DNA of 64,000 bases, taken from Thalassomonas actiniarum (GTDB taxonomy: Bacteria > Pseudomonadota > Gammaproteobacteria > Enterobacterales > Alteromonadaceae). Shown piece after piece: positions 34,691 through 63,476 of this stretch (positions are counted from its first letter, which is position 1; every line of letters begins with the position of its first letter). The notes under the pieces were generated by a model. The model was not told the origin of the DNA and did no database searches. It saw only the letters and a program-made list of their open reading frames with translations. Made by a program: the position numbers and the translations under genes. The DNA is taken from positions 6,446,603 to 6,510,602 of the forward strand of contig NZ_CP059735.1 of assembly GCF_000948975.2 (NCBI RefSeq), written 5' to 3'.

Positions 34691-36394
34691 ATGGGGGAGA
34701 AAAAAACCAGGGTAACCCGCTATCTGTTCGAGGATCTGATCCTGGACATCCAGCAAGGCAGGCTATTAAGAAATGACGAAGAAATTTACCTGCCCAAACT
34801 TAGCTACGATCTATTAGTCTCCCTGGTGGAATCGTCCCCGGCTTTATTAAGCCAACAAGAGTTAATGGAAAAAGTCTGGCCCGACCGGGTCATTGGCGAT
34901 GAAACCTTAAAGCAAAGAGTAAAACTGTTACGCAAATCCCTCGGGGATGATGCCGGCAACCCCAGATATATCGAAGCCATCCGCGGACGAGGATACCGGT
35001 TGCGTCCCAAGGTAAAATGCGAATGTGTGATCAACCAGGCCCCGGCGGCCATTGTGGATTTGGCCGCCAACGATCATTTTCCCAATATCACCTACCAGCA
35101 ACTGACCGGCATCTGGCGTAGAATATCCCGGTTAGGGCTTACCCTTATAATTGGCCTGAGCCTGGTGACGGTTTTATATTCCCAGCTATATTCGAATCAG
35201 CAAGCAGATCCCGTTCAGCTTACTGCCAAGAAAACCAATCATTCCCCTCAGGTATTAACGGCAAAAGAAATAGCCAATGACTATTACCTCAAAGGAAAAG
35301 CATACTATCAGCGCTACCGTAAAATCGATAACAGCATCGCCATAGAGTTTTTCCACAAAGCCCTGGCCAAAGACCCTACGTTTTCCTTGGCTTATGCCGG
35401 CTTAAGCCAGGCACACAGCCAACAACTGTTCCAATTTAACGGCGAGGAAAGTGATAAGATAAAAGCCATAGACAATGCCTACCAGGCCATCACCTTCGAC
35501 AATAATTCAGCGGATGCCTACAAGGCGCTCGGTGTCGCTTATTATGTTTCCGGCTGGCTATCTAAAAGCATTAATGCCCATTTAAAAGCCTTGTCACTGG
35601 CCCCGGACAATTTAGAAACCCTGTCAAATTTAGGCTTTATTTATAGCGAACAGGGCAAACTGGCACAAGCCGTCAACTGGCATAAAAAAGCGCTGGCAAT
35701 CAATCCCGGCCATGTGGTCACTATGGTGCATGCGGGCCAAACCTTAGGCCAGCTAGGCCACGAACAATTGGCAAAAACCTGGTTTAACAAAGCGATAGAC
35801 CTGCAGCCAGATTACCTGCTGGCCAGCTATCACTTAGGACAGGCACAACTGAGCACTAAGCAATATCAAGAGGCAATAACAACCTACCAGGACGCACTAG
35901 AGCGTTATCAGGACCATGCATTATTATCCGAAGGCCTTGCGGACAGTTATTTTTATAACGGCCAGACAGAATTAGCCCATAAAACCTATCAGGAGATAAT
36001 AGTTAAACAGGAAAACAAAGTGTTGCCCCGGGTGCATTTGATGTTTTTACTGACAGCCGCAAAATTGCCAACAAAAGAAATCACCGCCTTAACGGCCAGC
36101 CTGAAAAACAGCCTTTATGAAGGCTCGGATAAAGCCAGTCTAAGTTATGATTTAGCCCTGATCTACGCCAGGCAAAAGCAGGAGCAACAAGCTATCCGCT
36201 ACCTGGTACAAGCACTAGAGCAAGGTTTAACCCAAGTCAGTAAAGTTGAAAATCATCCACTGTTTCAGCCGCTGAAAGTATCTGACAGCTTTAACCGTGT
36301 GCTCACCCGGATGAAGCAAAAGCAAGGCAGGGAAAACCAACTTAGTAGTGAGCTGGCATTTTTTAAAGCTGAAGAAGTGATCCCACTCGGTTAA
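34691..36394 (+). CDS. CadC-like membrane regulator: winged HTH, one TM helix, TPR repeats
   Basis: 567 residues. N-terminal Trans_reg_C winged HTH (about 10-108): EEIYLPKLSYDLLVSLVES, LMEKVWPDRVIGDETLKQRV, YIEAIRGRGYRLRPK. A single membrane helix follows (about 148-168, LGLTLIIGLSLVTVLYSQLY), then periplasmic TPR repeats from about 195 to 530 (YYLKGKAYYQRYR, ALGVAYYVSGWLSKSI, LGFIYSEQGKLAQAVNWHKK). The topology matches ToxR/CadC one-component regulators whose periplasmic part senses a signal. ATG 34691 has AAAGGA 8-9 bp upstream. Followed by an intrinsic terminator. Confidence 0.9.
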   Translation: MGEKKTRVTRYLFEDLILDIQQGRLLRNDEEIYLPKLSYDLLVSLVESSPALLSQQELMEKVWPDRVIGDETLKQRVKLLRKSLGDDAGNPRYIEAIRGRGYRLRPKVKCECVINQAPAAIVDLAANDHFPNITYQQLTGIWRRISRLGLTLIIGLSLVTVLYSQLYSNQQADPVQLTAKKTNHSPQVLTAKEIANDYYLKGKAYYQRYRKIDNSIAIEFFHKALAKDPTFSLAYAGLSQAHSQQLFQFNGEESDKIKAIDNAYQAITFDNNSADAYKALGVAYYVSGWLSKSINAHLKALSLAPDNLETLSNLGFIYSEQGKLAQAVNWHKKALAINPGHVVTMVHAGQTLGQLGHEQLAKTWFNKAIDLQPDYLLASYHLGQAQLSTKQYQEAITTYQDALERYQDHALLSEGLADSYFYNGQTELAHKTYQEIIVKQENKVLPRVHLMFLLTAAKLPTKEITALTASLKNSLYEGSDKASLSYDLALIYARQKQEQQAIRYLVQALEQGLTQVSKVENHPLFQPLKVSDSFNRVLTRMKQKQGRENQLSSELAFFKAEEVIPLG

Positions 36395-36455: not shown

Positions 36456-36480
36456 AACCTTTGATGAAAGGTTTATTTTT
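36456..36480 (+). terminator. Terminator after the CadC-like regulator gene
   Basis: Arms AACCTTT (36456-36462) and AAAGGTT (36467-36473) with loop GATG, followed by TATTTTT. It overlaps the stop codon of the converging zinc-ribbon gene. Confidence 0.65.
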
Positions 36481-37024
36481 CCGCGGAATAGGGATCTTCC
36501 GCTAACAGATATGCACGTAAATCAGCTTTATTAGGTTGTTTTTCTAACCAAGTTCTTAATTCTTTAACTTTTTCATAAGTTTCCTGGCCAAACTTATCCA
36601 GATAAATTTCATAAAAGTTATCTTTGGTACTGATAGTACGTATGTTTTTTTGCCAATGACTGGTTAACACTGCGTTTAATGAGCCCGCCAAACCTTCTTC
36701 TTTCAGCAGTTCCCATTCACCGCTGTCTAACCAAACCCCACCAACCCCGGCACTATAATCGATACGATAGGTATTACTGGCGGTAAGGCGAAATTTTCTC
36801 ATGATTGTGCCGGTTACCGGGCATAAAATAGCCTTTTTAGTATCTTCCACTTCATAATTAACATTATCATCAAAGGTAAATTCCGGATTACGCTCTTTCC
36901 AGGCGACATAATCTTCGATGAGTATCCAGTTACCCTGGCAATTAGAACAGGTGTGCGCCCTGAACAGCCCGTCAATAAAACTGGGAACTAACTCCCCCGC
37001 ATTACAACTTGTGCATTTCATCAT
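36473..37024 (-). CDS. Zinc-ribbon (zf-TFIIB-like) protein
   Basis: 183 residues, soluble. Two cysteine pairs at the N-terminus (MKCTSCNAGELVP and HTCSNCQGNWI) form a zinc ribbon; a second, partial ribbon-like unit begins ILCPVTGTIMRKFRL and contains GGVWLDSGEWELLKEE, the WLDxGE phrase typical of zf-TFIIB domains. The C-terminal part is helical (QETYEKVKELRTWLEKQP). Divergent from the yqiJ-flotillin-ATPase run across 317 bp. Function unknown; similar proteins are known only as zf-TFIIB domain proteins. Confidence 0.8.
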   Translation of the reverse strand: MMKCTSCNAGELVPSFIDGLFRAHTCSNCQGNWILIEDYVAWKERNPEFTFDDNVNYEVEDTKKAILCPVTGTIMRKFRLTASNTYRIDYSAGVGGVWLDSGEWELLKEEGLAGSLNAVLTSHWQKNIRTISTKDNFYEIYLDKFGQETYEKVKELRTWLEKQPNKADLRAYLLAEDPYSAEK

Positions 37025-37341
37025 TTGAGTATCCTTTGGGTATTTTTACGACCTGAACGCCATAATCTATTTCATACGGTTAATAGTATGTTAAAATTGC
37101 AAGCAACAGCTATAATAACATGCCTAATATCCTGTTATCTTACCCTAAACAGAGAAAGAATCGCATCTTAATTTAGCTAAGCATTCCGAAATGAAGCGCG
37201 GTAATCCGCCGTAATGTTCAAACAAGAACATGGTTGACATAATGTCGGCCGCAGTCATTGATGACGGTTCATTCGAAACCCGTATAAGCAATAAAAACAA
37301 GTATCATCAAGCAATAGCAATAACCTATTTAAGGATAAAAT
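37025..37341. other. 317-bp intergenic region before the yqiJ-like gene
   Basis: No gene is supported. It is AT-rich, holds the upstream regions of the zinc-ribbon gene (AAGGAT before its ATG) and of the yqiJ-like gene (AAGGATAAAAT just before 37342). No clear operator was recognised. Confidence 0.6.
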
Positions 37342-37980
37342 ATGCAGCAAGTCTTTACCGTTGCCAGCCAGTTTCCTACTGTTATCTACACTGTATTATT
37401 AGCCGTAGTTGTCATTTACTGGCTGGTGGGCATGCTCGGACTGATCGACTTAGATTTCTCCGGCGATGTCGATGTTGATATCGACGCAGATGTCGATGCT
37501 GATGCCAGCGTTGGCGGCTTAACCGGTTTACTGCTGACCTTTGGCTTAACCGGGGTGCCTTTTACCCTGGTGATCAGCATTATTATCCTGGTGTGCTGGC
37601 TGATCAGTTTTTACCTGCAATTTTATCTGCTGACCTGGCTGCCAGACGGCTGGCTTTATTACCTGGCGGCGACAGCGGCAAGTTTTGTGGTATTTTTAGT
37701 GTCATTACCCGTGACCGCGATTTTGATCCGCCCGTTAAAAGGCATGTTCAACAGCGTGGAAACCGCCAGCAGCAACAACCTGGTGGGTAAAGACGCCACT
37801 ATCGCCACAGGCTCGGTCACTGAAACCTTCGGCCAGGCAAAAGTTTTTAACGACGGCGCAGAAATTTTACTTGATGTCCGTTGTGATCCCCAGCACCGGC
37901 TAAGCATGGGGGATAAGGTCCTGCTGATCGAATATCAGCAGGACAGCCATACCTATATAGTCGCACCGTTTTCAGGCTAA
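37342..37980 (+). CDS. yqiJ: YqiJ-like inner-membrane protein with OB/NfeD-like C-terminus
   Basis: 212 residues. N-terminal helix (VIYTVLLAVVVIYWLVGMLG), then an Asp-rich segment with repeated DVD/DAD (about 36-54), two or three further membrane helices (about 58-130) and a C-terminal beta domain (about 142-212: LVGKDATIATGSVTETFGQAK, here LVGKDATIATGS; LDVRCDPQHRLSMGDKVLLI) like the soluble OB fold of NfeD/YqiJ partners of flotillins. It lies 101 bp upstream of the flotillin gene, as in the E. coli yqiJ-yqiK pair. Expected to assist flotillin assembly in the inner membrane. Confidence 0.82.
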   Translation: MQQVFTVASQFPTVIYTVLLAVVVIYWLVGMLGLIDLDFSGDVDVDIDADVDADASVGGLTGLLLTFGLTGVPFTLVISIIILVCWLISFYLQFYLLTWLPDGWLYYLAATAASFVVFLVSLPVTAILIRPLKGMFNSVETASSNNLVGKDATIATGSVTETFGQAKVFNDGAEILLDVRCDPQHRLSMGDKVLLIEYQQDSHTYIVAPFSG

Positions 37981-38081
37981 CTTGCGATAGTTAACACTTT
38001 TATACCCGTTTAAACACAAGATTAAAAACTTACGCTGCCGTTCTACGCACCGGCAGCCAATATTAATAAGAGGAAAAACCT

Positions 38082-40088
38082 ATGGTTTTGGAACCACTTT
38101 TTTTAGCAATTGGTATAGGCGTATTATTCGTCTTTTCACTCCTGATCATGGTCGCCAAGTTTTATAACAAGGTTGAACAGGGTCAGGCGCTGATCATCAA
38201 TAAATTACGCGCCGAGCCGGAAGTCAGCACCACCGGCGGCATGGTGATCCCGGTGATCCATAAAAAAGAAGTCATGGACATTTCCACCAAACGTATGGTG
38301 CTTGAGCGCAAAGGCCGCTCCGGTTTGATCTGCCAGGATAATATCCGCGCCGATATCATCATCACCTTTTATATCCGGGTCAATGAAACCAAGGAAGACA
38401 TACTGCGGGTGGCGAAACAAGTGGGTTGCGACCGCTCTTCCTACCCGGAAACCTTGCAGGAGTTGTTCGAAGCCAAGTTCTCTGAAGCCCTGAAAACCGT
38501 AGGTAAACAATTAAACTTTACCGAGCTTTTTACCCAGCGCAACAGCTTCCGCGATAAAATCAAGGAAGTGATCGGCCAGGACTTATCCGGTTATGTGTTG
38601 GAAGATGTTGCCATCGACTTTCTTGAGCAAACTTCTATCCGGGATCTTGATCCCAACAACATCATGGACGCCGAAGGTATTCGCCGCATCACCGAACTTA
38701 CCGCCCAGCAAAGTGTAGAAACCAACGACCTTAAGCGTCAGGAAGAAATCCGCATCAAACGCCAGGATATCGACGCCAAAGAAAAAGCGCTGGAACTGGA
38801 ACGCCAGCTGGCAGACGCCGAAGCCAAACAGCAAAGAGAAGTAGCAACGGTCAAAGCCCGCGAAGAAGCAGAAACCGCGAAAATCATGGAAGAAGAGCGC
38901 AGCAAGGCCGAACAGGCGAGAATCGACACCGAGCAGGTAATTGCCGTAGCCGAAGAGAACAAGTTGCGTGAAGCAGAAATCGCCGAGCAGAACAAGCTCA
39001 GGGCGGTTGCCATCGAAGAAGAAAAAGTCAAACGCGCCCGTCAGATCGAAGCCATCGACCGGGAAAAAGAGGTAGAAACGCTGCGCATAGACAAAGAAAA
39101 AGCCCTGGAAATCGAACGTAAAAATATCGCCGAAGTACAAAAAGAACGTATTGCGGTTGAGAAAAGTGTGGCGGAAGAAGAAGAGAACATCAAAGATCTG
39201 CGCGTGGTTTCTGAAGCCAACCGTTTAAAAGAAGAGCAGGTTATCAAGGCCAAGGCGGAAGCCGAAGAAGCCCTGGTGAAAGATATCGAAGCCGCCAAGG
39301 CAGAAGAGCAGGCAGCAGAGCACCAGGCGCGTAAGCTGCAAACCATAGCCGAAGCAGAATTAAAAGCCGCCAGCAAGCAGGCGGAAGCGAAGAAAATTCT
39401 CGCCGAAGGTGAGCAGGCGGAAGCGGCATCGTTAGGTCTGGCAGAAGCCCAGGTGACTCTGGCTCAGGCGGATGCCCAGGAAAGACACGGTGAAGCAGAA
39501 GCGAAAACGCTGGAGCTGAGATTAACCGCCGAAGCCAAAGGCATTGAAGAAAAAGGCCTGGCGGAAGCCACAGGCCTGCGCGAGAAGCAGGATGTACTCA
39601 ACTCGATGTCGGAATCGGCGCGTGATTTTGAGACCTTCGGTCTGCGTTTGAACCAGGAAAGAGAGCTGACCCTGGCGAAACTGGGCAACAGTGTCGATTT
39701 GGCCGAGAAACAGGCGGAAGTATTAGCCACCGCCCTGGGCGAAGCCAACATCAATATTATGGGCGGCGACGGCGAGTTCTTACGTCAGTTTATGAAGTCT
39801 ATCACTGTGGGTAAATCTCTCGACGGTCTGGTCAGTGAAAGTGAAACCATGCAAACCCTGTTTAAAGATCAATTAAACGGCGAGCGCAACATCATGGACG
39901 ACTTAAAAGGCGTATTGGCGGGGGCTTCCGATTCCAGCGAAACCCTGAAAAACATCAATATGGCCAAGTTATTGTCCAGCCTGAATAATGCCGATGAAAG
40001 CCAGAAAGGAGCATTAGCCAGCCTGCTTGGTTTAGGCGGTTCTTTAGGTGATGTATTAGGCGGTAAAAACACCACTGACGTGAAATAA
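38082..40088 (+). CDS. yqiK: Flotillin-like SPFH-domain protein (YqiK-like)
   Basis: 668 residues. N-terminal membrane helix (LAIGIGVLFVFSLLIMVAKF), SPFH/band-7 domain (about 30-210: NKVEQGQALIINK, TTGGMVIPVIHKKEVMDIS, LEDVAIDFLEQTSIRDLDP), a very long Glu/Ala/Lys-rich coiled coil (about 215-520, repeating AE and EEE blocks such as QADAQERHGEAEAKTLELR) and a C-terminal flotillin region (GLRLNQERELTLAKLGNSV; INIMGGDGEFLRQFM). Flotillins form membrane microdomain scaffolds. AGAGGA precedes the ATG. Flanked by the YqiJ-like gene and the giant ATPase gene on the same strand. Confidence 0.92.
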   Translation: MVLEPLFLAIGIGVLFVFSLLIMVAKFYNKVEQGQALIINKLRAEPEVSTTGGMVIPVIHKKEVMDISTKRMVLERKGRSGLICQDNIRADIIITFYIRVNETKEDILRVAKQVGCDRSSYPETLQELFEAKFSEALKTVGKQLNFTELFTQRNSFRDKIKEVIGQDLSGYVLEDVAIDFLEQTSIRDLDPNNIMDAEGIRRITELTAQQSVETNDLKRQEEIRIKRQDIDAKEKALELERQLADAEAKQQREVATVKAREEAETAKIMEEERSKAEQARIDTEQVIAVAEENKLREAEIAEQNKLRAVAIEEEKVKRARQIEAIDREKEVETLRIDKEKALEIERKNIAEVQKERIAVEKSVAEEEENIKDLRVVSEANRLKEEQVIKAKAEAEEALVKDIEAAKAEEQAAEHQARKLQTIAEAELKAASKQAEAKKILAEGEQAEAASLGLAEAQVTLAQADAQERHGEAEAKTLELRLTAEAKGIEEKGLAEATGLREKQDVLNSMSESARDFETFGLRLNQERELTLAKLGNSVDLAEKQAEVLATALGEANINIMGGDGEFLRQFMKSITVGKSLDGLVSESETMQTLFKDQLNGERNIMDDLKGVLAGASDSSETLKNINMAKLLSSLNNADESQKGALASLLGLGGSLGDVLGGKNTTDVK

Positions 40089-40204
40089 AGTCACCCGCCA
40101 AAGTGAAAAACGCCTGCTCTGCTGATGTAAAAGGGCAGGCGAGTACAGATTTATGCCTTTGCCTGTCCGGGCAAGGGCTGAAAAGTTATCCCGTGGAGAG
40201 TTAA

Positions 40205-43200
40205 ATGTCCGAGATGGAAAATGTCGATAATGAAGCCGTAGCCCAGGGCGGCTCCTATGAATTGATCCAGCGCCGGTTACAGGGCTTAGGTGAAGACCTC
40301 ACCGGCCAGCTTAAACAGCTTAATGATGATCGTATATCCCTGTTCGGCTCGACCGATATGAAGGTTGAAGCCAGGGTCAGGGTACGCACCGAGCATAACT
40401 GTGTCGCCCGGGATATCGCCGCCATCGGCGAATTATTGCTGTTTGGTTATAACGTTTTCCTCGGCCTGAAACGCAATATCACGGTAGCGGATGTTTTCAG
40501 CCTGCATAAGCTGGTGGACAATAACGGCGAGCTGGAAATGGTGGACGTGCCCTTTGCCGGCAGCTTTTTAGACGACGCCGACTTTATCCGCGATTTCGAC
40601 GAACTCTACACTTATTATAAAAAAACCTTTCTTGCCCATGTTTACCGCCAGGGCAGCAAGGTTTTTGCCGTGTTCCAGATCGGCGAACGCCTCGACGATA
40701 TCCGGGTATTCCAGTGGGGTATATCTGCCGACGGCGAAGTTCGCTATATCGACAACCGCGGCGAGCGCAATATCAAGCAGCCGGAAAATTTCGACTTTGA
40801 ATGGCAAAAAGTCAGCCGCGAGCAGCAGGAAACCGGCAAACATCCCCATTACAATTTATTCGATACCTTGTTTGTCGAAGCCATCAACGGCAGCCTAACC
40901 CTCAAGGTTGAAAACAATACCGAAGACGGCCAGGGCATCTATAGCGAAGAAGTCGACGACGCCCATCAGTCGCTGGACGACGCCGAAATCCATTATGCCA
41001 AGGTTGGCGAGTTGATCCTGTTAAAAATCAAACCCTACCGGGAGCAGCAAACCCGCCACCTGATTTTTAACTGCAAAACCCAGGAAGTATTACGCCAGGA
41101 TGCGATAGAACACGCCTGTGTCCAGCTGCCGGAAGATCACGGTATTATTTTCCCCGGCGGTTATTACCTGCAAAGCGGTGAAAACAAAAGCTTTGACGAC
41201 AGCGCCGAAGACCTGCAATTGCACCGGGTGGTAAAATCTCCCAACGGCGAAGACTTCCTTTATATCTTTTACGAACCCAACGAAGGTCAGTATGCGCTGT
41301 TCGGTTACAACCTGATCACCCGTACCCTGCAAAACCCCATTTACGGCCACGGCCAGAGTCTCGCCAATAACGGCCGCGCCGTGGTATTTAACGCCGAGTC
41401 GGAGCCGTCACGCATCCACGCCATGCAAATCTGGCAAACGCCGTTTTGCAGCGAAGAATATGCCAGCGAACAACCAACGGAAAGCGGCCTGTTCGGTAAA
41501 ATCGGCAACCCGGAACTGGTACGGGGCATCTCCGATTTATACGGCGTGGTTAAGCTGATCAATGTAAAAACACCGAGCGTGCACCACTTCAACGACCTGG
41601 TGAAAGAGTCGGCGCAGCTGCTGGATAAATACCACTGGTTGACCGACCCCCAGTTATCTGCCCTGAGCGAGCTGATCAAACAAGTGATCAACACCTCAGA
41701 GCTGGTGCTGGATGAATTTGAAAAAGTCGCCAGTATCAAAGCCGCTTCCGATCAGGTCATGCTTGAGGCCAGCCAAAAACAAGAAGAAATAATCAAGCGC
41801 TGCGAAAAGGCCAGTTTCGACAGCGCCGAAGGCTATGTCCAGGGACTGACGGATCTTGCCGCCTTCAAAGGCGAGCTAATCTCCCATAAAGATCTGAAAT
41901 ATATAGATCTGACACAAATCGAGACCATGGAGGCCGAGTTAGAAGCATTAACGCTCACCTTGAGCCAGGCCACGGCCGACTTTCTCCAAAAAGATCAGGC
42001 ACTGAAACCTTATCAGGATAAAATTGAGCAGCTGGAAAAAGACATAGCATCCAGCGAGTCGATCACCGCATTAAAACCCATTCGCGCCGCCATCGACGAA
42101 CAGGTACAGGGGCTGGAGCTACTCAACCACACCATGTTGTCCCTCAATATCGAGGACAGCAGGCAACGTACCCGGATACTGGAAGATATCTCCACCGTCT
42201 TCAGCCAAATTAACCGGGTTAAGGCAAGCGCCGATCTGGCAGCGAAAAATGTCGGCTCAGAAGAAGCACGGGCAGAATTTGGCGCCCGCTTTAAACTGCT
42301 GGGACAAAGCGTTACCAGCGCCTTAAATGCCAGCGATACCCCGCAGGCCTGTGATCAGCAATTGTCGACCTTGCTAATTCAGCTGGAAGAGCTGGAAAGC
42401 CAGTTCAGCGACTATGATGAGTTCTATCAGGAAATTCTCGCCAAGCGGGATGAAATCTACGACAACTTCGAGCAGCATAAACAGCAGTTGATGGATGCCC
42501 AACAAAGGCGTTGTTTAAACCTGAAAACCGCCGCCGACCGTATCCTCGAAGGCATCAACCGCCGCAGCCAGGACTTTAACGACGTTAACAAGCTCAACAG
42601 CTATTTTGCCGCCGATCCTATGATGGCAAAATTAAGGCAGTTGACGGAGCAGTTGCGGGATCTGGATGATAACGTGCGTGCCGATGATATCGACGCCCAG
42701 CTGAAAAACGCCAAAGAGCAGGGCATACGCGCCTTGCGCGATAAAACCGACATTTACTCCGCCGACGGCAGCCTGGTAAAAATCGGCGAACACCAGTTCT
42801 CCGTCAACCGGCAAAAACTGGAACTGACCCTGCTGCCCAGGGAGCAAGCCATGGTACTGCATATCAGCGGCACCGACTATTTTGAACCGTTAGCGCCAGA
42901 GTTTTTTGCCGGCACAGAGCATTTATGGCAGCAGGAGCTGATCTCGGAAAGCAGCGAGGTTTACCGCGGCGAATACCTGGCGGCAAGTATATTATTCGAG
43001 GCCGAAGCCAAAGGCAGCACCGGCATAGGTACTCTGCTTAACGCAGCCAAAGAAAACACCTTAACCGAGCTGGTGCGTAAAGCCGCCGAACCCAGATACC
43101 AGGAAGGTTATGACAAAGGGGTGCACGACGCCGATGCCAGCCTGATCCTGACCGAGCTACTGACCTTACGCGAATCGGTAGGTTTATTAGCCTATGCCGC

Positions 43201-45433
43201 AGCCGAGCGCCGCCTGGCATGGGTTTATATGGCAACCAAGCTAAATGATCAAGCACGCCAGCAATTAGTCAGCCGCTGCCACAACCTCTATTTGATGGAG
43301 CAAACTTTCGGTAGCAGTGAGCTGCGCGCCCAGCTGAGCAATGAACTGGCTCAAGCCTTAACCGCCCTGACAGCAGAGCAAAACTGGCTGGCCTGCGACA
43401 GCGGTTTAGCCGCAGATTATCTGATCAACGAATTTGCCGACGGTAAACAGCAATACGTGCTCCGTGAAGCCGCCCAAAGCCTGGTGAATCAGTTACAAAA
43501 CCAACTCAAACATAAGAGCCTGGAACAACAACTGCAATCGGCCCTGGCCGGATGTAGCAGCCTGGAGCAGAAAATGAAACTGCACCTGGCCTGGTTAACC
43601 TCCTTTGCCGGACATCAGGGTGTTGATGCCGACCAGGAATTAATCCTTGAAGGGGCCAGCCTGATGACGTTAACAGAGCAGCTGAAATTTTATGATTCCA
43701 GCGCCAACACCTCAGGCACGGTTAAAGGCTTATTGGGGCAACATGGCCGCATCAAAGAGCGGGTGCTGGCATTTAACTACCAGGAATTTATTGCCCGGCT
43801 GAGAAATTTTGCCAACGAACAAGTACCTGCTTTTACCCGTTTCCACCAGATGAAACAGCAGATATTAACCGAGCAACGCCAGCGCTTGCGCCTGCAGGAG
43901 TTCAAACCGGGAGCACTGTCGTCTTTTGTTCGCAACAAGCTGATCAACGACGTCTATTTCCCCATTATCGGCACTAACCTGGCCAAACAAATCGGTGCCG
44001 CCGGCAATAATAAACGCTCAGATCTGATGGGCTTGTTATTAATGATTTCACCGCCGGGATACGGTAAAACCACCTTGATCGAATATGTCGCCAGCAAGCT
44101 CGGCATGACCTTCGTCAAGGTCAACTGCCCCTCTATCGGCCATGAACAATTATCCCTGGATCCCGCCCAGGCCAACAACTCCACCGCCCGCAGCGAAGTA
44201 GAGAAAATCAACCTGGCGTTTGAAATGGGCAACAATGTCATGCTCTACCTGGATGATATCCAGCATACCAACCCGGAGTTTTTGCAGAAATTTATTTCCC
44301 TGTGTGACGGCTCAAGACGGGTAGACGGCGTCTGGAACGGCGAAAGCAAAACCTATGATATGCGTGGTAAAAAATTTGCCGTGGTCATGGCGGGTAACCC
44401 CTATACCGAATCCGGCGAAGCCTTTACCATCCCGGATATGCTCGCCAACCGCGCCGACATCTATAACCTGGGTGACACCTTAAGCGGCCGTGAACATGAG
44501 TTCTCGTTGAGCTTTATCGAAAACAGCTTAACCAGCAACAGCTATATCGCGCCGCTGGCCACCCGGGATATGGACGACCTCTACCAGCTGGTGAAAATGG
44601 CCGACGGCGAACCGCTGCCGATCACCGAACTTAAACACGGTTATTCCCAGGCGGAAGTGAACGAGATCATCGCGGTTATCCAGCGCATCCGTAAAATCCA
44701 GCAAACCGTGCTTAAGGCCAACGAACAATATATTGCCTCCGCCGCCCAGGACGATAAATACCGGGTTGAACCGCCGTTTAAATTACAGGGCAGCTACCGC
44801 AATATGAACAAGATGGCGGAAAAAGTGGTGCCGGTGATGACGGATGAAGAGCTGGAACTGCTGATTGCAGATCATTACCGCGGCGAAGCACAAACCCTGA
44901 CGGTAGGCGCGGAAGAAAACCTGTTAAAACTGGCGGAACTAAGAGAAACATTAACGGATGAACAAGAGCAGCGCTGGCAGCAAATCAAAAACGATTATGT
45001 CCGCCACCAGAACCTGGGCAGCGGCGATGATCCGCTGGCTTCGATTGCCAGCCAGATTTCGTTATTGCAGCAGGGGCTGGGCCAGATAGGCAGCGCCCTG
45101 GAGCAGCCAAAATCCGACGGTTTGGATCAGATAAGTCAGTCATTGTCGGCACTGACCAGCCAATTAAACGGCCAAAAAACAGAAGCCGGCAACAATGCCG
45201 AGCTGGAAAAAACTCTGGCGATATTCAGCGAAAAAATGGAGGCTTTCCTGACTCCCCTGGTCACGACCTTGCAAAACAACCAGGCTCTGGACAGCGCCCT
45301 GGTGGAAACCCTGAAAACACTGGAGGTTAAACCGGGACAGCCAGTGCGCAGCGCCACCAGTGAAATCCAGAAAATCAGCCGGGAACTGGTGCAGGACAGA
45401 GAAAACAGTTCGGATGAATTAATACAGGACTGA
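40205..45433 (+). CDS. Giant AAA+ ATPase (DUF3686-type 'DNA repair ATPase')
   Basis: 1742 residues, soluble. The N-terminal ~480 residues are beta-rich and match in my memory the DUF3686 'ATPase involved in DNA repair' family (SLFGSTDMKVEARVRVRTEHN, here GSTDMKVEARVRVRTEHN). Long coiled coils follow (about 500-900), then a mixed middle. The AAA+ module has Walker A SPPGYGKTTLIEYV (near 1283), Walker B VMLYLDDIQHTNPEFLQKF (near 1345), sensor-like VVMAGNPYTESGE and an Arg-containing NMLANRADIYNL region (DMLANRADIYNL). The tail (about 1590-1742) is helical. Start supported by GGAGAG. Lies 116 bp after the flotillin gene. The 'DNA repair' label is historical; no experiment known to me supports it. 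Confidence 0.85.
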   Translation: MSEMENVDNEAVAQGGSYELIQRRLQGLGEDLTGQLKQLNDDRISLFGSTDMKVEARVRVRTEHNCVARDIAAIGELLLFGYNVFLGLKRNITVADVFSLHKLVDNNGELEMVDVPFAGSFLDDADFIRDFDELYTYYKKTFLAHVYRQGSKVFAVFQIGERLDDIRVFQWGISADGEVRYIDNRGERNIKQPENFDFEWQKVSREQQETGKHPHYNLFDTLFVEAINGSLTLKVENNTEDGQGIYSEEVDDAHQSLDDAEIHYAKVGELILLKIKPYREQQTRHLIFNCKTQEVLRQDAIEHACVQLPEDHGIIFPGGYYLQSGENKSFDDSAEDLQLHRVVKSPNGEDFLYIFYEPNEGQYALFGYNLITRTLQNPIYGHGQSLANNGRAVVFNAESEPSRIHAMQIWQTPFCSEEYASEQPTESGLFGKIGNPELVRGISDLYGVVKLINVKTPSVHHFNDLVKESAQLLDKYHWLTDPQLSALSELIKQVINTSELVLDEFEKVASIKAASDQVMLEASQKQEEIIKRCEKASFDSAEGYVQGLTDLAAFKGELISHKDLKYIDLTQIETMEAELEALTLTLSQATADFLQKDQALKPYQDKIEQLEKDIASSESITALKPIRAAIDEQVQGLELLNHTMLSLNIEDSRQRTRILEDISTVFSQINRVKASADLAAKNVGSEEARAEFGARFKLLGQSVTSALNASDTPQACDQQLSTLLIQLEELESQFSDYDEFYQEILAKRDEIYDNFEQHKQQLMDAQQRRCLNLKTAADRILEGINRRSQDFNDVNKLNSYFAADPMMAKLRQLTEQLRDLDDNVRADDIDAQLKNAKEQGIRALRDKTDIYSADGSLVKIGEHQFSVNRQKLELTLLPREQAMVLHISGTDYFEPLAPEFFAGTEHLWQQELISESSEVYRGEYLAASILFEAEAKGSTGIGTLLNAAKENTLTELVRKAAEPRYQEGYDKGVHDADASLILTELLTLRESVGLLAYAAAERRLAWVYMATKLNDQARQQLVSRCHNLYLMEQTFGSSELRAQLSNELAQALTALTAEQNWLACDSGLAADYLINEFADGKQQYVLREAAQSLVNQLQNQLKHKSLEQQLQSALAGCSSLEQKMKLHLAWLTSFAGHQGVDADQELILEGASLMTLTEQLKFYDSSANTSGTVKGLLGQHGRIKERVLAFNYQEFIARLRNFANEQVPAFTRFHQMKQQILTEQRQRLRLQEFKPGALSSFVRNKLINDVYFPIIGTNLAKQIGAAGNNKRSDLMGLLLMISPPGYGKTTLIEYVASKLGMTFVKVNCPSIGHEQLSLDPAQANNSTARSEVEKINLAFEMGNNVMLYLDDIQHTNPEFLQKFISLCDGSRRVDGVWNGESKTYDMRGKKFAVVMAGNPYTESGEAFTIPDMLANRADIYNLGDTLSGREHEFSLSFIENSLTSNSYIAPLATRDMDDLYQLVKMADGEPLPITELKHGYSQAEVNEIIAVIQRIRKIQQTVLKANEQYIASAAQDDKYRVEPPFKLQGSYRNMNKMAEKVVPVMTDEELELLIADHYRGEAQTLTVGAEENLLKLAELRETLTDEQEQRWQQIKNDYVRHQNLGSGDDPLASIASQISLLQQGLGQIGSALEQPKSDGLDQISQSLSALTSQLNGQKTEAGNNAELEKTLAIFSEKMEAFLTPLVTTLQNNQALDSALVETLKTLEVKPGQPVRSATSEIQKISRELVQDRENSSDELIQD

Positions 45434-45605
45434 TAGTTAAAGGAAAAGCACTCCTCCTCCCCGCCGGGTCTAAACGTCTGGCGGGAACCTGCCTGCCAAG
45501 CTTTCCTCCACAAGCGGATATAAACTCACACTTTTATCAGCAAGAGCTACACTAATACACATTCAATATTTCGCTGAAAGAAGGTCTTCTTTACCATGCG
45601 CTTGG

Positions 45606-46826
45606 ATGGAAGATATGACAGCTATTGAAATCATAGGTGTTGTGCTGATTTTCGCCGTGACCGGCATAACCGGTCTGATGGTGATACGTGTAATAAAAAT
45701 CCCTTATTCCCTGGCCCTGGTGCTGCTGGGGTTTATCCTGTCTTTCTCCATAGGAATCTTTGACTGGGACAGCGGCATCCGGGCCAGCAACTTCCAGGCT
45801 CTGATGCTGTTTGTACTGCTGCCGGTATTGATTTTTGAAGCAGCCTTTGTGCTGGACAGCAAGCTATTATTTAAATTCCTGCCGAACGTACTGACCCTGG
45901 CCACTATAGGTTTGCTGTTATCAACTGTGCTGACTGCCATATTACTTTTTTACGGCATAGGACACCCGGGATTTCCCTTTATCGCCGCCCTGATTACCGG
46001 TGCCGTGGTTTCCGCCACAGATCCCGTGGCAGTGGTGGCGCAATTAAAAGCCCTGAAAGCGCCGGCTGAGCTGAATGTGCTAATTGAAGGGGAAAGCTTA
46101 TTTAACGATGCCACGGCCATCGCCCTGTTTACTATCCTGGTCAGTATCGGCATAGGCGCCGCTGAGCCGGACGTGATCTCGGGTTTAGTCCAGTTCTTAA
46201 AAATATTCTTCGGCGGCATTTTAGTCGGCATGCTGATGGGCTGCATGTTTGCTTTTTCCCTCAGGTTATTGGCGGTTAACGTGCCGGCCCTGGTGCTGGT
46301 TTCCCTGGTATTGGCCTACGGCAGTTTTTATATCGGCGAGCACTTTTTCCATGTTTCCGGCATAGTCGCGGTATTATTTGCCGCCATCGCCTTTAAAAGG
46401 TTCGGCCAACAAGCCCTCACCCCGGTGGAACATGAACTTCACAGTATCTGGGAGTCTATCGGTTTTATCGCCAACGTCTTCGTCTTTGTCTTATTGGGAC
46501 TGGTGGTTTCTGTCGACATGTTCACCGAGCGCTGGCTGGCGATAGGGCTTGCGGTGATCGCCGCCACAGTAGCGCGCTTTATCGCCGTTTATAGCTCCAC
46601 CAGCTTGAACAGATTTACCCTGGGGCAAACCATAGATCCCAGGTACCCGCCGATCATGATCTGGGGTGGCCTGCGCGGTGCCGTCACCATAGCCCTGGTG
46701 CTGTCGCTGCCTACCGAACTGCCCTACTGGTGGACCATTCAATCCATAGGTTTTGGCGTAGTCTTATTTACCCTTATCGTGCAAGCCACCACCACCCCTT
46801 TATTAGTGAAAAGATTGAAAATATAG
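45606..46826 (+). CDS. CPA1-family Na+/H+ antiporter
   Basis: 406 residues, about twelve hydrophobic segments, no large cytosolic tail. Monovalent cation/proton antiporter of the NhaP/NHE type. Signature motifs: LLPVLIFEAAFVLDSKLL, SATDPVAVVAQLKAL (the Asp of the ion site), IEGESLFNDATAIALF (ND motif) and WGGLRGAVTIALVLSLP. Two possible starts: 45606 and the Met three codons later; neither has a clear ribosome site. It follows the giant ATPase gene by 172 bp with a small palindrome (AAAGAAG-GT-CTTCTTT, 45577-45592) between, so it may have its own promoter. Confidence 0.92.
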   Translation: MEDMTAIEIIGVVLIFAVTGITGLMVIRVIKIPYSLALVLLGFILSFSIGIFDWDSGIRASNFQALMLFVLLPVLIFEAAFVLDSKLLFKFLPNVLTLATIGLLLSTVLTAILLFYGIGHPGFPFIAALITGAVVSATDPVAVVAQLKALKAPAELNVLIEGESLFNDATAIALFTILVSIGIGAAEPDVISGLVQFLKIFFGGILVGMLMGCMFAFSLRLLAVNVPALVLVSLVLAYGSFYIGEHFFHVSGIVAVLFAAIAFKRFGQQALTPVEHELHSIWESIGFIANVFVFVLLGLVVSVDMFTERWLAIGLAVIAATVARFIAVYSSTSLNRFTLGQTIDPRYPPIMIWGGLRGAVTIALVLSLPTELPYWWTIQSIGFGVVLFTLIVQATTTPLLVKRLKI

Positions 46827-61102: not shown

Positions 61103-61573
61103 TTAATTAAAATCACATTCCGCATCAAGTCCCATATAACCAATCATGTTATATGGGGTGCTGCTTCTTTCTCTTTTGGAAGTCATAGGTTCATAAGGAC
61201 GTATGGTATAAAAGGTTACCGAAATATCATTGCCCTGGGCATCCACGGTAGAGCCGGAAGCGTCATGTAAGCGACTGGTGTCCAGCACAAATTCAGGCCC
61301 GGTCAGGTAAGCGCCCGAACGGTTGCTATTATAAATGGCGAAAGTCCATTCATAATCCTGTGACTGGCCCCACTGATCATTCCAGGCATTGGCCTTGACC
61401 ACATGTTTTTCCCACATCATGTCACGGTCGACACAGCCTACCGTGGTTTCAACAACAGCGGAGTTGCCCAAAGTAGAAGCGTACCAGACACGGCTCTGTT
61501 CAAGCGCATGACTGGAGGCACTGGCTAAAACAAGTAATGAACATGCCAGGGTAGTGGATTTAAACTTCATCAT
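61103..61573 (-). CDS. Exported protein of unknown function
   Basis: 156 residues. Signal peptide about 1-23 (ending SSHA). Mature part with SRVWYASTLGNSAVVETT, the pair VGCVDRDMMW and a C-terminal DAECDFN, so one disulfide is likely. Beta-rich. Unlike the array proteins upstream in sequence. GGAAATT precedes the ATG. No family recognised. It lies 136 bp downstream of the nearest array gene, on the same strand. Confidence 0.65.
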   Translation of the reverse strand: MMKFKSTTLACSLLVLASASSHALEQSRVWYASTLGNSAVVETTVGCVDRDMMWEKHVVKANAWNDQWGQSQDYEWTFAIYNSNRSGAYLTGPEFVLDTSRLHDASGSTVDAQGNDISVTFYTIRPYEPMTSKRERSSTPYNMIGYMGLDAECDFN

Positions 61574-61709
61574 AATTTCCTTATAACTTCTTATTTTTTA
61601 TTGTTGGTATAGCCTGTCCGGCTACAAGGTGCGTCCCTGAATATGCCGGGGCGCCATGAATTTATCAGCACGCCTGCTGACAAATAAAACCTATCATCAA
61701 ATTTGGAGA

Positions 61710-62255
61710 TCAAAACTGCTCGTAAACCAGTACTTCCAAATCAACGTCTTCAATCACATCCAGGTTACCCTGAATATCGATATTTAAATTATCGCATTTG
61801 CCGCCCGTCACCAGGGTATTGTCTATGGTCAGGGTCACTTCCTTGCGAAAGTCTGAAATCGGTTGGCTGGTATAAAGATTTTCATCGTCCCGGTCGACAC
61901 CTATTGCCACTTTGCTGCCATCATCGGCAATACAGGTAGCAGTGATCCTGACGTCATAAACAAAGTCATTGATATCCGGGTCATCGCCGGTGTAGCAAAT
62001 CACCGAACCGGCAGAGTAATCACAAATAATATCCGGCTTGATCCTGCCTAAACCGGACACGATAGCGGTAATATCAAAGGTCAATTCCTGCCCGGCATCA
62101 CCGACAAGCTCAATATCGGCAGTACGCCGGGTATCCGAGCTATAGCTATAATCGGTCACAATATGCTTAACACCGCCGATATAAACCACATCGGCAAAAG
62201 ACGGGCTGGCCGTTAACAAAGCCAGCGCCGGTAACACACACTTCAAATACTTCAT
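61710..62255 (-). CDS. Secreted tandem-array protein, copy A
   Basis: 181 residues. Signal peptide about 1-21 (ALLTASPSFA), then the array signature VVYIGGVKHIVTDYS, a GDAGQELTFDITAIVSG block, Cys in IICDYSAGSVICYTG, an Asp-rich VDRDDENLY and the C-terminal block VTGGKCDNLNIDIQGNLD, ending VLVYEQF. The most divergent member. Four cysteines could form two disulfides. No known family. GGATG lies before the ATG. Confidence 0.7.
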   Translation of the reverse strand: MKYLKCVLPALALLTASPSFADVVYIGGVKHIVTDYSYSSDTRRTADIELVGDAGQELTFDITAIVSGLGRIKPDIICDYSAGSVICYTGDDPDINDFVYDVRITATCIADDGSKVAIGVDRDDENLYTSQPISDFRKEVTLTIDNTLVTGGKCDNLNIDIQGNLDVIEDVDLEVLVYEQF

Positions 62256-62310
62256 TTTTCATCCTTAAACAAACATTTAAAAGAAACAGACAAGCTGTCG
62301 GTGACGCACG

Positions 62311-62868
62311 TTAAAACTCTTCAACAATAAACATATTCAGATCGATATTATCGATAGATTTCACATCGACCCCGTTCACTTCGACCTTTAATTGCTGACA
62401 GCTGCCGCCTGTGGTGATCCTTTTATTCACCAGCAGCTTCACTTCCCGGTCTTTATTGGCGACAAAGCCGTTGACCAGCTCATTTTTATTATCCATATCT
62501 GAGCCTATGGCAATGCCGTTACAGGTGATTTTCATTTCCGCCTGGTAACGAAAGTCCTGATCGTAAGTGATCAGCCAGTCTGGCTCGGCACAGTATTCCC
62601 AAGGCTGGGCATTACGGGGCAGCAGGCAGCGCCATTCCCGGGTCACATCCTGCACGCCTTTACCGGCCACGATAGCATCGACATTAAAAATCAGCTCCTG
62701 ACCGTAATCACCGATAACATCGATATTGGCGGTATAGTTATTGCCGGACTGGCTAAAATCAGCTTTGCTCAGGGTATGCATAGTGCCGCCGACATAAACG
62801 GTATCTGCCTGGGCCGCCGTTGATAAAACCGGTAATAATAACGCCAATAAATAAAGTGCTTTTTTCAT
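62311..62868 (-). CDS. Secreted tandem-array protein, copy B
   Basis: 185 residues. Signal peptide ends STAAQA. Shares with copy C the core TVYVGGTMHTLSKADFSQSG, IDVIGDYGQELIFNVDAIV, the motif AIGSDMDNKNE, REVKLLVNKR, GGSCQQLKVEVNG and the C-terminal IVEEF. Cysteines: WRCLL, EYCAE, ITCNG, GGSCQ. Probably one domain with two disulfides; the Asp-rich loop SDMDNKNE could bind calcium, which is inference. Unknown family. Confidence 0.72.
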   Translation of the reverse strand: MKKALYLLALLLPVLSTAAQADTVYVGGTMHTLSKADFSQSGNNYTANIDVIGDYGQELIFNVDAIVAGKGVQDVTREWRCLLPRNAQPWEYCAEPDWLITYDQDFRYQAEMKITCNGIAIGSDMDNKNELVNGFVANKDREVKLLVNKRITTGGSCQQLKVEVNGVDVKSIDNIDLNMFIVEEF

Positions 62869-62930
62869 TTTTCTTCCTTGTACTCGTGCTCTTGCAAAAA
62901 ATGTCTTCTAAAAATAACGGGCTTAGCGGG

Positions 62931-63476
62931 TTAGAACGTTTCGGCAATCAGCACATCCAGCGAGATATTGCTGATGCTGTCCAGCTCCAGACCGTTAACT
63001 TCCACTTTAAGCTGCTGACAATTACCGCCGGTTACCAGGGTATTCTGGGTCAGTAATTTCACTTCCCGGTATTTATTGCTCACCCGGCCGTCAACCTGTT
63101 CGTTTTTATTGTCCATATCTGACCCTATGGCTATGCCGCTGCAGCTCACGTTCAGCTCGACAACATAGCGAAAGTCATCAGAAATAATCTCGCGAATATC
63201 CGGCTCAACGCAGCCCCAGCGCCCCATCTGCAGACATATTTTCTGGTAGGTGATTTGCTGGTAACCGTTACCGCCGACCACAGCGTCAACATCAAAAATC
63301 AGTTGCTGGCCGTTATCGCCAACCACATCAATATAAGCGCTGTAATGATTGCCGGATTGCACAAAATCGCTTTTTGTCAGGGTATGCAAAGTACCGTTTA
63401 CATAAACGGTATCCGCATGGGCTACGCCGCTTAAAGCAGACATCAGCAACAGGGATGTCAGGGCTATTTTTTTCAT
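62931..63476 (-). CDS. Secreted tandem-array protein, copy C
   Basis: 181 residues. Signal peptide ends GVAHA. Core TVYVNGTLHTLTKSDFVQSG, IDVVGDNGQQLIFDVDAVV, GRWGCVEPDI, AIGSDMDNKNEQVDG, REVKLLTQN, GGNCQQLKVEVNG, ending VLIAETF. Closest to copy B, so that pair arose by recent duplication. No known family. Confidence 0.72.
   Translation of the reverse strand: MKKIALTSLLLMSALSGVAHADTVYVNGTLHTLTKSDFVQSGNHYSAYIDVVGDNGQQLIFDVDAVVGGNGYQQITYQKICLQMGRWGCVEPDIREIISDDFRYVVELNVSCSGIAIGSDMDNKNEQVDGRVSNKYREVKLLTQNTLVTGGNCQQLKVEVNGLELDSISNISLDVLIAETF

What the first reader, a model, noticed from the sequence alone, without database searches (positions are those of the whole stretch)
36473..46826. YqiJ-flotillin-giant AAA+ ATPase module beside a zinc-ribbon protein and a CPA1 antiporter
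Sequence: a YqiJ-like protein, a flotillin with a roughly 300-residue Glu/Ala coiled coil and a 1742-residue AAA+ protein with intact Walker A and B motifs lie in one direction with gaps of 101 and 116 bp. Known: yqiJ-yqiK pairs exist in E. coli; the ATPase family carries only the untested 'DNA repair' label. Inference: the ATPase may act on the flotillin scaffold or use it as a membrane anchor, giving a membrane-remodelling, stress or defence machine. A defence role is a guess: no nuclease domain was seen.
Basis: partly seen in the sequence, partly recalled or inferred. Interest (0 to 1): 0.75.

Follow-up and report, generated by a model that had tools for sequence, protein, structure and literature searches.

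The report
Flotillin-AAA+ membrane-stress module with zinc-ribbon partner
A bacterial gene set that pairs a membrane-scaffold protein (flotillin) with a giant ATP-driven motor, and here also a small zinc-binding protein, is a member of an already described kind of envelope-stress operon; scaffold and motor turn out to be near-constant partners, which makes their joint action testable.

Summary
In detail: YqiJ-like (37342-37980), flotillin (38082-40088) and a 1742-aa AAA+ protein (40205-45433) lie in tandem, gaps 101 and 116 bp. It is not new in kind: Ravi et al. 2024 (PMC11237479, passages) describe this triad with or without a CesT/Tir-PspA pair. Its likely Pseudomonas aeruginosa counterpart is the bac operon. 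Added here: in 92 of 92 loci with at least 1.5 kb upstream of the ATPase, a flotillin lies upstream on the same strand. That flotillin forms a separate clade, found in 10 of 10 ATPase-positive and 0 of 49 ATPase-negative genomes, own genome included. The zinc-ribbon gene is a real but optional partner (9 of 10 versus 5 of 49). The CPA1 antiporter is a flank: a same-genus genome keeps it but lacks the other four genes. The ATPase is modelled as beta-propeller, long helices and one MoxR/RuvB-like AAA+ domain; 'DNA repair' gains little support. Most likely: an ATP-driven remodeller on a flotillin membrane-stress scaffold. Defence is not supported.

The parts
36473..37024 (-). Zinc-ribbon protein (183 aa). 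First ribbon CxxC...CxxC intact; the second ribbon, intact in the Burkholderiales and Cellvibrio relatives, is degenerate here
   Evidence: co-occurs with the ATPase
37025..37341 (.). Divergent intergenic region, presumably the module's promoter(s) (inference)
   Evidence: no sigma-54-like site with a strict pattern
37342..37980 (+). YqiJ/NfeD2-like membrane protein (212 aa)
38082..40088 (+). Flotillin (668 aa): N-terminal hydrophobic segment, SPFH/Band_7 domain, Glu/Ala-rich coiled coil; member of the ATPase-coupled flotillin clade
39594..39851 (+). Flotillin residues about 505-590: conserved C-terminal segment of ATPase-coupled flotillins, aligned to gaps or unrelated sequence in YqiK-type flotillins; candidate docking site (inference)
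40205..45433 (+). DUF3686 AAA+ ATPase (1742 aa), annotated in several relatives as 'DNA repair ATPase'
40361..41437 (+). ATPase residues 53-411: beta-propeller (model)
   Evidence: model pLDDT 87.7; Foldseek matches include many propellers
41489..42751 (+). ATPase residues 429-849: long helices / coiled coils (model)
44030..44839 (+). ATPase residues about 1276-1545: AAA+ core with Walker A at 1283-1290, Walker B LDDI at 1349-1352, modelled hairpin 1372-1385, sensor-1 Asn 1398, invariant NRAD at 1415-1418 (motif names recalled)
45606..46826 (+). CPA1 Na+/H+ antiporter: flank, NOT part of the module
34691..36394 (+). Trans_reg_C + TPR regulator: left flank, NOT part of the module

Best explanation
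The roughly 9-kb unit 36473-45433 (zinc-ribbon gene, yqiJ, flotillin, ATPase) is an abbreviated member of the PspA/flotillin/AAA+ envelope-stress operons: the form without a linked yjfI-pspA pair, like Pseudomonas bac without bacAB. Proposed mechanism: YqiJ (NfeD-like) and the flotillin build an oligomeric SPFH scaffold on the cytoplasmic face of the inner membrane. The ATPase assembles through its single AAA+ domain as a ring, is brought to the scaffold by its propeller, its helical region and/or the extra C-terminal segment of the dedicated flotillin, and uses ATP to remodel or disassemble scaffold-bound client proteins (the scaffold itself, PspA-type polymers, or damaged membrane complexes) under envelope stress. 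The zinc-ribbon protein is an optional accessory adaptor or regulator. Shown here: gene order, linkage, the separate flotillin clade, domain folds as models, zinc-ribbon co-occurrence, absence of the four genes with the antiporter kept. Inferred: ring, docking, remodelling and stress role.
For: 92 of 92 loci with at least 1.5 kb upstream have flotillin upstream on the same strand, 79 within 500 bp; yqiJ in 89 of 92; yjfI and pspA both in 40 of 92. Coupled flotillins score 408-452 bits in exactly the 10 ATPase-positive of 59 genomes (own included); the best in the 49 others is 157 bits, and a tree separates 89 coupled from 11 uncoupled with support 1.0. Distance matrices correlate: ATPase-flotillin r 0.90, ATPase-YqiJ 0.85 over 89 loci. 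AAA+ fold neighbours are NorQ, CbbQ2 (MoxR family), RuvB, MCM. The own genome has a yjfI-pspA operon elsewhere. Published: the triad with CesT/Tir-PspA (PMC11237479, passages); bacA to bacF co-transcribed, bacA mutant with biofilm, swarming and rhamnolipid defects (PMC10948618, passages); PA3731 accumulates on osmotic shock (PMC2587700, passages); PA3728-PA3732 up in phage-infected cells (PMC12041424, one passage).
Against: No physical interaction or ATPase activity was seen in the papers found. In 28 of 35 genomes whose module lacks linked pspA there is no DUF2170 hit, so a YjfI-PspA partner is not required and cannot be the only client. The bac phenotypes are from bacA and bacB mutants, not from the flotillin or ATPase genes. 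The correspondence of PA3728-PA3732 with this module rests on order, size and published labels; no P. aeruginosa sequence was aligned here. Foldseek matches of the AAA+ half are modest (E about 1e-5; TM-score by target 0.41-0.62 for the NorQ and CbbQ rows shown). The distance correlation has no species-tree control.
Confidence: 0.6

Rival explanations
1. The ATPase only uses the flotillin scaffold as a membrane anchor and does its work on a separate client, much as MoxR-type ATPases (NorQ, CbbQ) act through partner proteins on enzymes, or as FtsH works inside the HflKC cage (both analogies recalled).
For: Nearest AAA+ folds are NorQ and CbbQ2. YjfI-PspA is dispensable. Rhomboid genes (17 of 92 loci) and PLD-type genes (15 loci) hint at clients that vary by lineage.
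Against: No single client gene besides flotillin and YqiJ recurs in most loci; the commonest further family in the open search was in 15 loci.
Confidence: 0.25
2. Anti-phage defence: the module detects infection at the membrane and kills or blocks.
For: Patchy distribution (10 of 59 genomes, 8 of 398 in the phylum sample, own included), plasmid copies, empty site; the likely P. aeruginosa counterpart is up in phage-infected cells (PMC12041424, one passage); PLD-type genes beside 15 loci, the one tested matching DrmC at 1.8e-11, which may be general PLD-fold similarity.
Against: No PADLOC hit for the five window proteins; no effector domain found in the core; no homologue found in phage records or viral contigs. 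Psp operons are known to respond to many envelope insults (recalled), so induction by phage is not specific. PADLOC does not hold undiscovered systems.
Confidence: 0.07
3. DNA repair ATPase, as the database label says.
For: Annotation 'DNA repair ATPase' or 'DNA repair protein' in relatives; RuvB is among the fold neighbours and weakly among sequence matches.
Against: Strict linkage to membrane-protein genes; no DNA-binding or nuclease domain over Pfam's cut-off; NorQ, CbbQ, RuvB and MCM score alike by fold, so RuvB is not singled out.
Confidence: 0.03

Closest known systems
PspA-CesT/Tir-flotillin-AAA+-YqiJ operons and their abbreviated forms (Ravi et al. 2024, PMC11237479; passages read)
   Same: YqiJ/YuaF membrane protein, band-7 + coiled coil + flotillin protein, AAA+ ATPase with propeller and coiled coil; forms without linked PspA are mentioned
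   Different: In the main-text passages a zinc ribbon is explained only for other operons, though a figure legend lists ZnR beside flotillin and CesT_Tir among PspA neighbours; supplements were not read.
Pseudomonas aeruginosa bacABCDEF / PA3732-PA3728 (PMC2587700 passages; PMC10948618 passages, outline, part of discussion)
   Same: DUF2170, PspA, 23-kDa membrane protein, 76-kDa protein, then PA3728 'ATPase'; the same order as Pseudomonas loci fetched here (L046, L053, L115 and others)
   Different: Here yjfI-pspA lies elsewhere in the genome; no rhomboid hit in the locus; no sigma-54-like site by a strict pattern
E. coli yqiJ-yqiK (SPFH2/NfeD2; PMC2636767 passages; locus L160)
   Same: YqiJ + flotillin pair in one direction
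   Different: YqiK is 553 aa, lacks the C-terminal segment, belongs to the other flotillin group, has no ATPase gene next to it
HflKC-FtsH (recalled, with remarks in passages of PMC2636767 and PMC10936438)
   Same: SPFH scaffold working with a AAA+ protein
   Different: FtsH is a membrane-bound protease (recalled); here the ATPase shows no protease domain
NorQ/NorD and CbbQ/CbbO MoxR systems
   Same: Nearest AAA+ folds
   Different: Those use VWA partners (NorD VWA in the titles; CbbO recalled); no VWA hit here

Membership tests
Flotillin-YqiJ-AAA+ triad (Ravi et al. 2024) | YqiJ/YuaF-type membrane protein gene next to a band-7/flotillin gene | tested here: met
   YqiJ_N is weak (0.0094), homology is carried by the family profile
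Flotillin-YqiJ-AAA+ triad (Ravi et al. 2024) | AAA+ protein with propeller and coiled coil | tested here: met
   (models)
Full PspA-CesT/Tir-flotillin-AAA+ operon (bac-like) | yjfI (DUF2170) and pspA in the same operon | tested here: not met
   absent from the locus; present elsewhere in the genome
bac-like operon | sigma-54 promoter | tested here: inconclusive
   strict pattern finds none here, but also 0 of 40 loci with linked yjfI, so the test is insensitive
YqiK-type flotillin | groups with E. coli YqiK | tested here: not met
   89 coupled split from 11 uncoupled flotillins including YqiK, support 1.0
MoxR-type AAA+ | AAA+ core nearest in fold to MoxR members | tested here: inconclusive
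   hairpin modelled at 1372-1385; NorQ/CbbQ2 rank first but MCM and RuvB follow closely
MoxR-type AAA+ | VWA-domain partner | tested here: not met
   no VWA hit among the nine proteins scanned
Known anti-phage systems (PADLOC-DB 2.0.0) | match to a system protein | tested here: not met
   0 hits for five window proteins
Flotillin/AAA+ complex | physical interaction and ATP hydrolysis | not testable with these tools
   needs biochemistry

The most novel reading that the evidence does not exclude
The module is a four-part machine: a dedicated flotillin whose extra C-terminal segment docks a MoxR/RuvB-like propeller-AAA+ ring on the membrane, with a zinc-ribbon protein as a genuine extra subunit or redox/zinc-sensing adaptor in part of the Proteobacteria. 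It would be a soluble-ATPase counterpart of the HflKC-FtsH cage that works with or without PspA, and the whole unit moves between genomes.
Probability: 0.35. Interest if true: 0.65.

Novelty: new member of a known kind. Interest (0 to 1): 0.47.

Why it matters
What SPFH/flotillin scaffolds do in bacteria is an open question. A flotillin clade that, in this sample, was not seen without one particular AAA+ motor turns it into a direct test: remove or purify the two together. It also gives a family labelled 'DNA repair ATPase' a better-founded functional guess, ties it to the published bac operon, and points to a zinc-ribbon protein and a flotillin C-terminal segment as parts worth testing.

Tried and rejected
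CPA1 antiporter as part of the module: rejected. In the fetched stretches it is next to the module only in the window and in L022 and L023, all of one genus, and it stays when the module is absent. Against this: unrelated Na+/H+ transporter genes do lie near two Streptomyces plasmid copies, nhaA directly after the ATPase in L161 and an ArsB/NhaD gene about 4 kb upstream in L033. Two cases were not counted as a pattern.

Defence: searched PADLOC, phage records, viral contigs; nothing for the window's proteins. A LmuB match of the pQBR103 ATPase (5.5e-6) falls in its helical region and was set aside as a likely coiled-coil similarity; the window ATPase had none at 0.01.

PspA as the obligatory client: rejected. 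DUF2170 was found in only 7 of 35 genomes with unlinked modules (35 of the 44 such genome-contig loci were given, nine with short contigs left out; some genomes are incomplete MAGs), although it is in 10 of 10 ATPase-positive versus 29 of 49 negative genomes near the window's (Fisher p 0.012). General PspA homologues were searched only in the own genome.

Sigma-54 site: a strict pattern gave 0 of 40 and 0 of 46 upstream regions; inconclusive.

Sequence search of solved structures with the ATPase profile gave only weak P-loop and coiled-coil matches; with the flotillin nothing at 0.1; with the zinc-ribbon family one short zinc-finger chain (1e-4) and three matches at 0.4-0.57.

Limits of the counts: the 80 loci are the best-scoring of at least 584, so they lean to closer relatives; plasmid members of 38-46% identity (L032-L035, and L161 outside the count) also show a flotillin gene. 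One search dropped L052, the same place as L018 (identical ATPase), and set aside seven loci with under 1.5 kb upstream: five show no flotillin because the contig ends, two show it. Loci of one genus are not independent (L022 is 97% identical to the window). The zinc-ribbon and flotillin profiles were built from copies near ATPase genes, which may favour such copies. 'Full-length' zinc-ribbon hits were my cut: at least 160 bits (next best 42 bits; 57 of 398 genomes match at E 0.001, mostly a single short ribbon) and at least 170 bits (next best 76). Fisher values ignore phylogeny. Flotillin lengths start at the first start codon and may be inflated. The flotillin tree line printed 'False' because of arbitrary rooting; one search tested the split itself.
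Full report
OBSERVATION. The five genes are at the stated places. Gaps of 101 and 116 bp separate yqiJ, flotillin and ATPase genes. Pfam gives DUF3686 (8.2e-192), DUF7902 and AAA on the 1742-aa protein, a TFIIB-type zinc ribbon on the 183-aa protein and Na_H_Exchanger on the last gene. The flotillin's SPFH domain appears only when its first 243 residues are searched alone (Band_7 3e-10). Walker A is intact; Walker B reads LDD, with both Asp invariant in 16 members.

ALREADY IN PRINT. Ravi et al. 2024 (PMC11237479; [quoted passage not shown] So the module's kind is known. Searches for DUF3686 and for 'DNA repair ATPase' with flotillin found no paper in the held library.

A LIKELY EXPERIMENTAL COUNTERPART. 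The Pseudomonas aeruginosa bac cluster has DUF2170 (BacA), PspA (BacB), a 23-kDa membrane protein (PA3730), a 76-kDa protein (PA3729) and two further genes (PMC2587700, passages; PMC10948618, passages, outline and the first part of the discussion). RT-PCR products span each gap from bacA to bacF; in the bacA mutant BacB, BacC, BacD and the two downstream proteins rise 6.1- to 13.5-fold; bacA and PA3731 mutants have biofilm, swarming and rhamnolipid defects. [quoted passage not shown] PA3728-PA3732 are among 17 genes up in all phage-infected samples (PMC12041424, one passage). PA3731 and PA3729 are listed in a proteomics table of adhering cells (PMC5541441, one passage). Pseudomonas loci fetched here show the order yjfI-pspA-yqiJ-flotillin-ATPase, which matches, but no P. 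aeruginosa sequence was aligned, so the correspondence is an inference.

DISTRIBUTION. One DUF3686 gene in the own genome (7.49 Mb); 10 of 59 genomes, the own and 58 relatives; 8 of 398 genomes drawn from the phylum, own included; 12 records of the plasmid collection at 38-48% identity over 83-97% of the query, some of these records being of chromosome size; no phage record; no viral contig; 584 or more places in genome contigs, of which 80 were kept. The nearest named relatives are Colwellia MAGs (75-76%).

LINKAGE. Of 99 distinct loci (window included), 92 have at least 1.5 kb of DNA upstream of the ATPase. All 92 have a flotillin gene upstream on the same strand, 79 within 500 bp, the farthest 6.4 kb; in five of the 13 exceptions a zinc-ribbon gene lies in the gap. 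yqiJ is found in 89 of 92, yjfI and pspA together in 40, a rhomboid gene in 17; of these 40 pairs, 38 lie on the ATPase's strand and 2 on the other. Distances between ATPases and flotillins correlate at r 0.90, ATPase and YqiJ at 0.85 over 89 loci, above all 999 label shuffles; common descent of the hosts was not controlled for.

A DEDICATED FLOTILLIN. A profile of 13 coupled SPFH domains scores 408-452 bits in exactly the 10 ATPase-positive genomes and at most 157 bits in the 49 others; 10 of these 49 hold a YqiK-type flotillin (136-157 bits) and one a trace match. A tree of 89 coupled and 11 uncoupled flotillins has the separating branch at support 1.0. Open frames of the coupled ones are 664-749 aa against 565-606 aa for the YqiK type. 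A C-terminal segment around residues 505-590, with R, E and GG invariant in 14 coupled sequences, is gapped or unrelated in the 11 uncoupled. It is the natural candidate for docking the ATPase; this is inference.

THE ZINC-RIBBON GENE IS A PARTNER, THE ANTIPORTER IS NOT. In same-genus genome G001 the left-flank regulator gene and the CPA1 gene are neighbours 320 bp apart; the four genes between them in the window are missing, with flank homology ending at the regulator's stop codon and resuming about 100 bp into the right intergenic stretch. Whether this is loss or an original empty site cannot be said. In L020, L024 and L036 the zinc-ribbon gene stays with the module although the outer flanks show no orthologues of the window's flanking genes within the stretches held (one transporter paralogue at 25% identity aside). 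The zinc-ribbon gene is near the module in 15 of 92 loci: divergent upstream of yqiJ in six, between flotillin and ATPase in five Burkholderiales, downstream on the same strand in three, 3.8 kb away in one. By genome it occurs in 9 of 10 ATPase-positive and 5 of 49 ATPase-negative genomes (p 1.4e-6); full-length in 5 of 8 positive and 2 of 390 negative genomes of the phylum sample (p 1.4e-8); and in 21 of 79 genomes of the genome-contig loci, 12 of these unlinked. So it is a frequent but optional partner, missing from most of these 79. Unlinked copies, with or without an ATPase in the genome, have unrelated neighbours (nine stretches). Its distances correlate with those of the ATPase at 0.68 over 18 pairs (largest of 999 shuffles 0.38). 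In the main text of Ravi et al. zinc ribbons are explained only for other operons, but a figure legend lists ZnR beside flotillin and CesT_Tir among PspA neighbours; supplements were not read and no paper search was made for this protein, so it may be known. Against the exclusion of antiporters in general: nhaA follows the ATPase in L161 and an ArsB/NhaD gene lies about 4 kb upstream of flotillin in L033.

PSPA. The own genome has three PspA-family matches, one beside a yjfI gene in another operon. All 10 ATPase-positive genomes have DUF2170 versus 29 of 49 others. But of 35 genome-contig genomes without linked pspA, 28 have no DUF2170 hit. PspA of the YjfJ kind is thus a common, not a required, companion.

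STRUCTURE OF THE ATPASE. Residues 1-850: pLDDT 87.7, pTM 0.64, strands 53-411 then long helices 429-849; Foldseek matches include clathrin terminal domain, paraoxonase, Ski-complex subunits, DDB1 and prolyl oligopeptidase, which hold propellers (recalled), beside matches to large assemblies that look like chance. Residues 840-1742: pLDDT 87.0, pTM 0.76, an all-helical part, then one AAA+ domain; nearest folds are NorQ and CbbQ2 of the MoxR family, then MCM, RuvB and, lower, Lon. The set fits the AAA+ group with a hairpin before sensor 1 (classification recalled); a hairpin is modelled at 1372-1385. One AAA+ domain per chain implies a ring of several chains (inference).

MECHANISM. Best reading: a membrane-stress machine in which YqiJ and the dedicated flotillin form the scaffold and the ATPase ring remodels what is bound there. 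Anchoring without acting on the scaffold is the main rival. Defence and DNA repair are weakly supported. In the listings and passages seen I found no experiment on the flotillin or ATPase genes themselves.

NOVELTY. New member of a known kind. 

Noticed in passing
L032 (plasmid pQBR103, NC_009444.1, 84437-97641): A same-strand run yjfI-pspA-rhomboid-DUF2491-DUF350-DUF1190-glutathionylspermidine synthase-hypothetical (yqiJ by profile)-SPFH-ATPase sits on this well-studied Pseudomonas plasmid.
   Followed up: partly
L044:15467-15703, L046:9527-9802, L053, L055, L057, L076, L115: A small 76-103 aa protein lies on the ATPase's strand in 7 loci; the two tested give TerB or EF-hand scores of 0.002-0.009, below Pfam's cut-offs.
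   Followed up: partly
15 loci, e.g. L017:13753-14457: A family of PLD-type hydrolase genes lies downstream of the ATPase (one member tested, PLDc_2 2.1e-33); Ravi et al. mention such a gene.
   Followed up: partly
8 distinct loci, e.g. L018:9738-10061: A small protein, 106-176 aa, lies 3.0-3.6 kb upstream of the ATPase on the same strand (one search lists 9, two of them the same place); the one tested has no Pfam hit.
   Followed up: no
L024: The ATPase gene is interrupted (two pieces of about 90 and 1583 aa) while flotillin, yqiJ and zinc-ribbon genes stay open (one TGA reported).
   Followed up: no
L161 and L033 (Streptomyces plasmids): Na+/H+ antiporter-type genes of other families (nhaA; ArsB/NhaD) lie near the module.
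   Followed up: no
window 61103-63476: A run of similar-sized ORFs (156, 181, 185, 181 aa) on the minus strand that may be tandem paralogues.
   Followed up: no
L154 (own genome C1:1390000-1405000): yjfI-pspA operon with a 582-aa and other predicted membrane proteins, perhaps the second PspA operon group of Ravi et al..
   Followed up: partly
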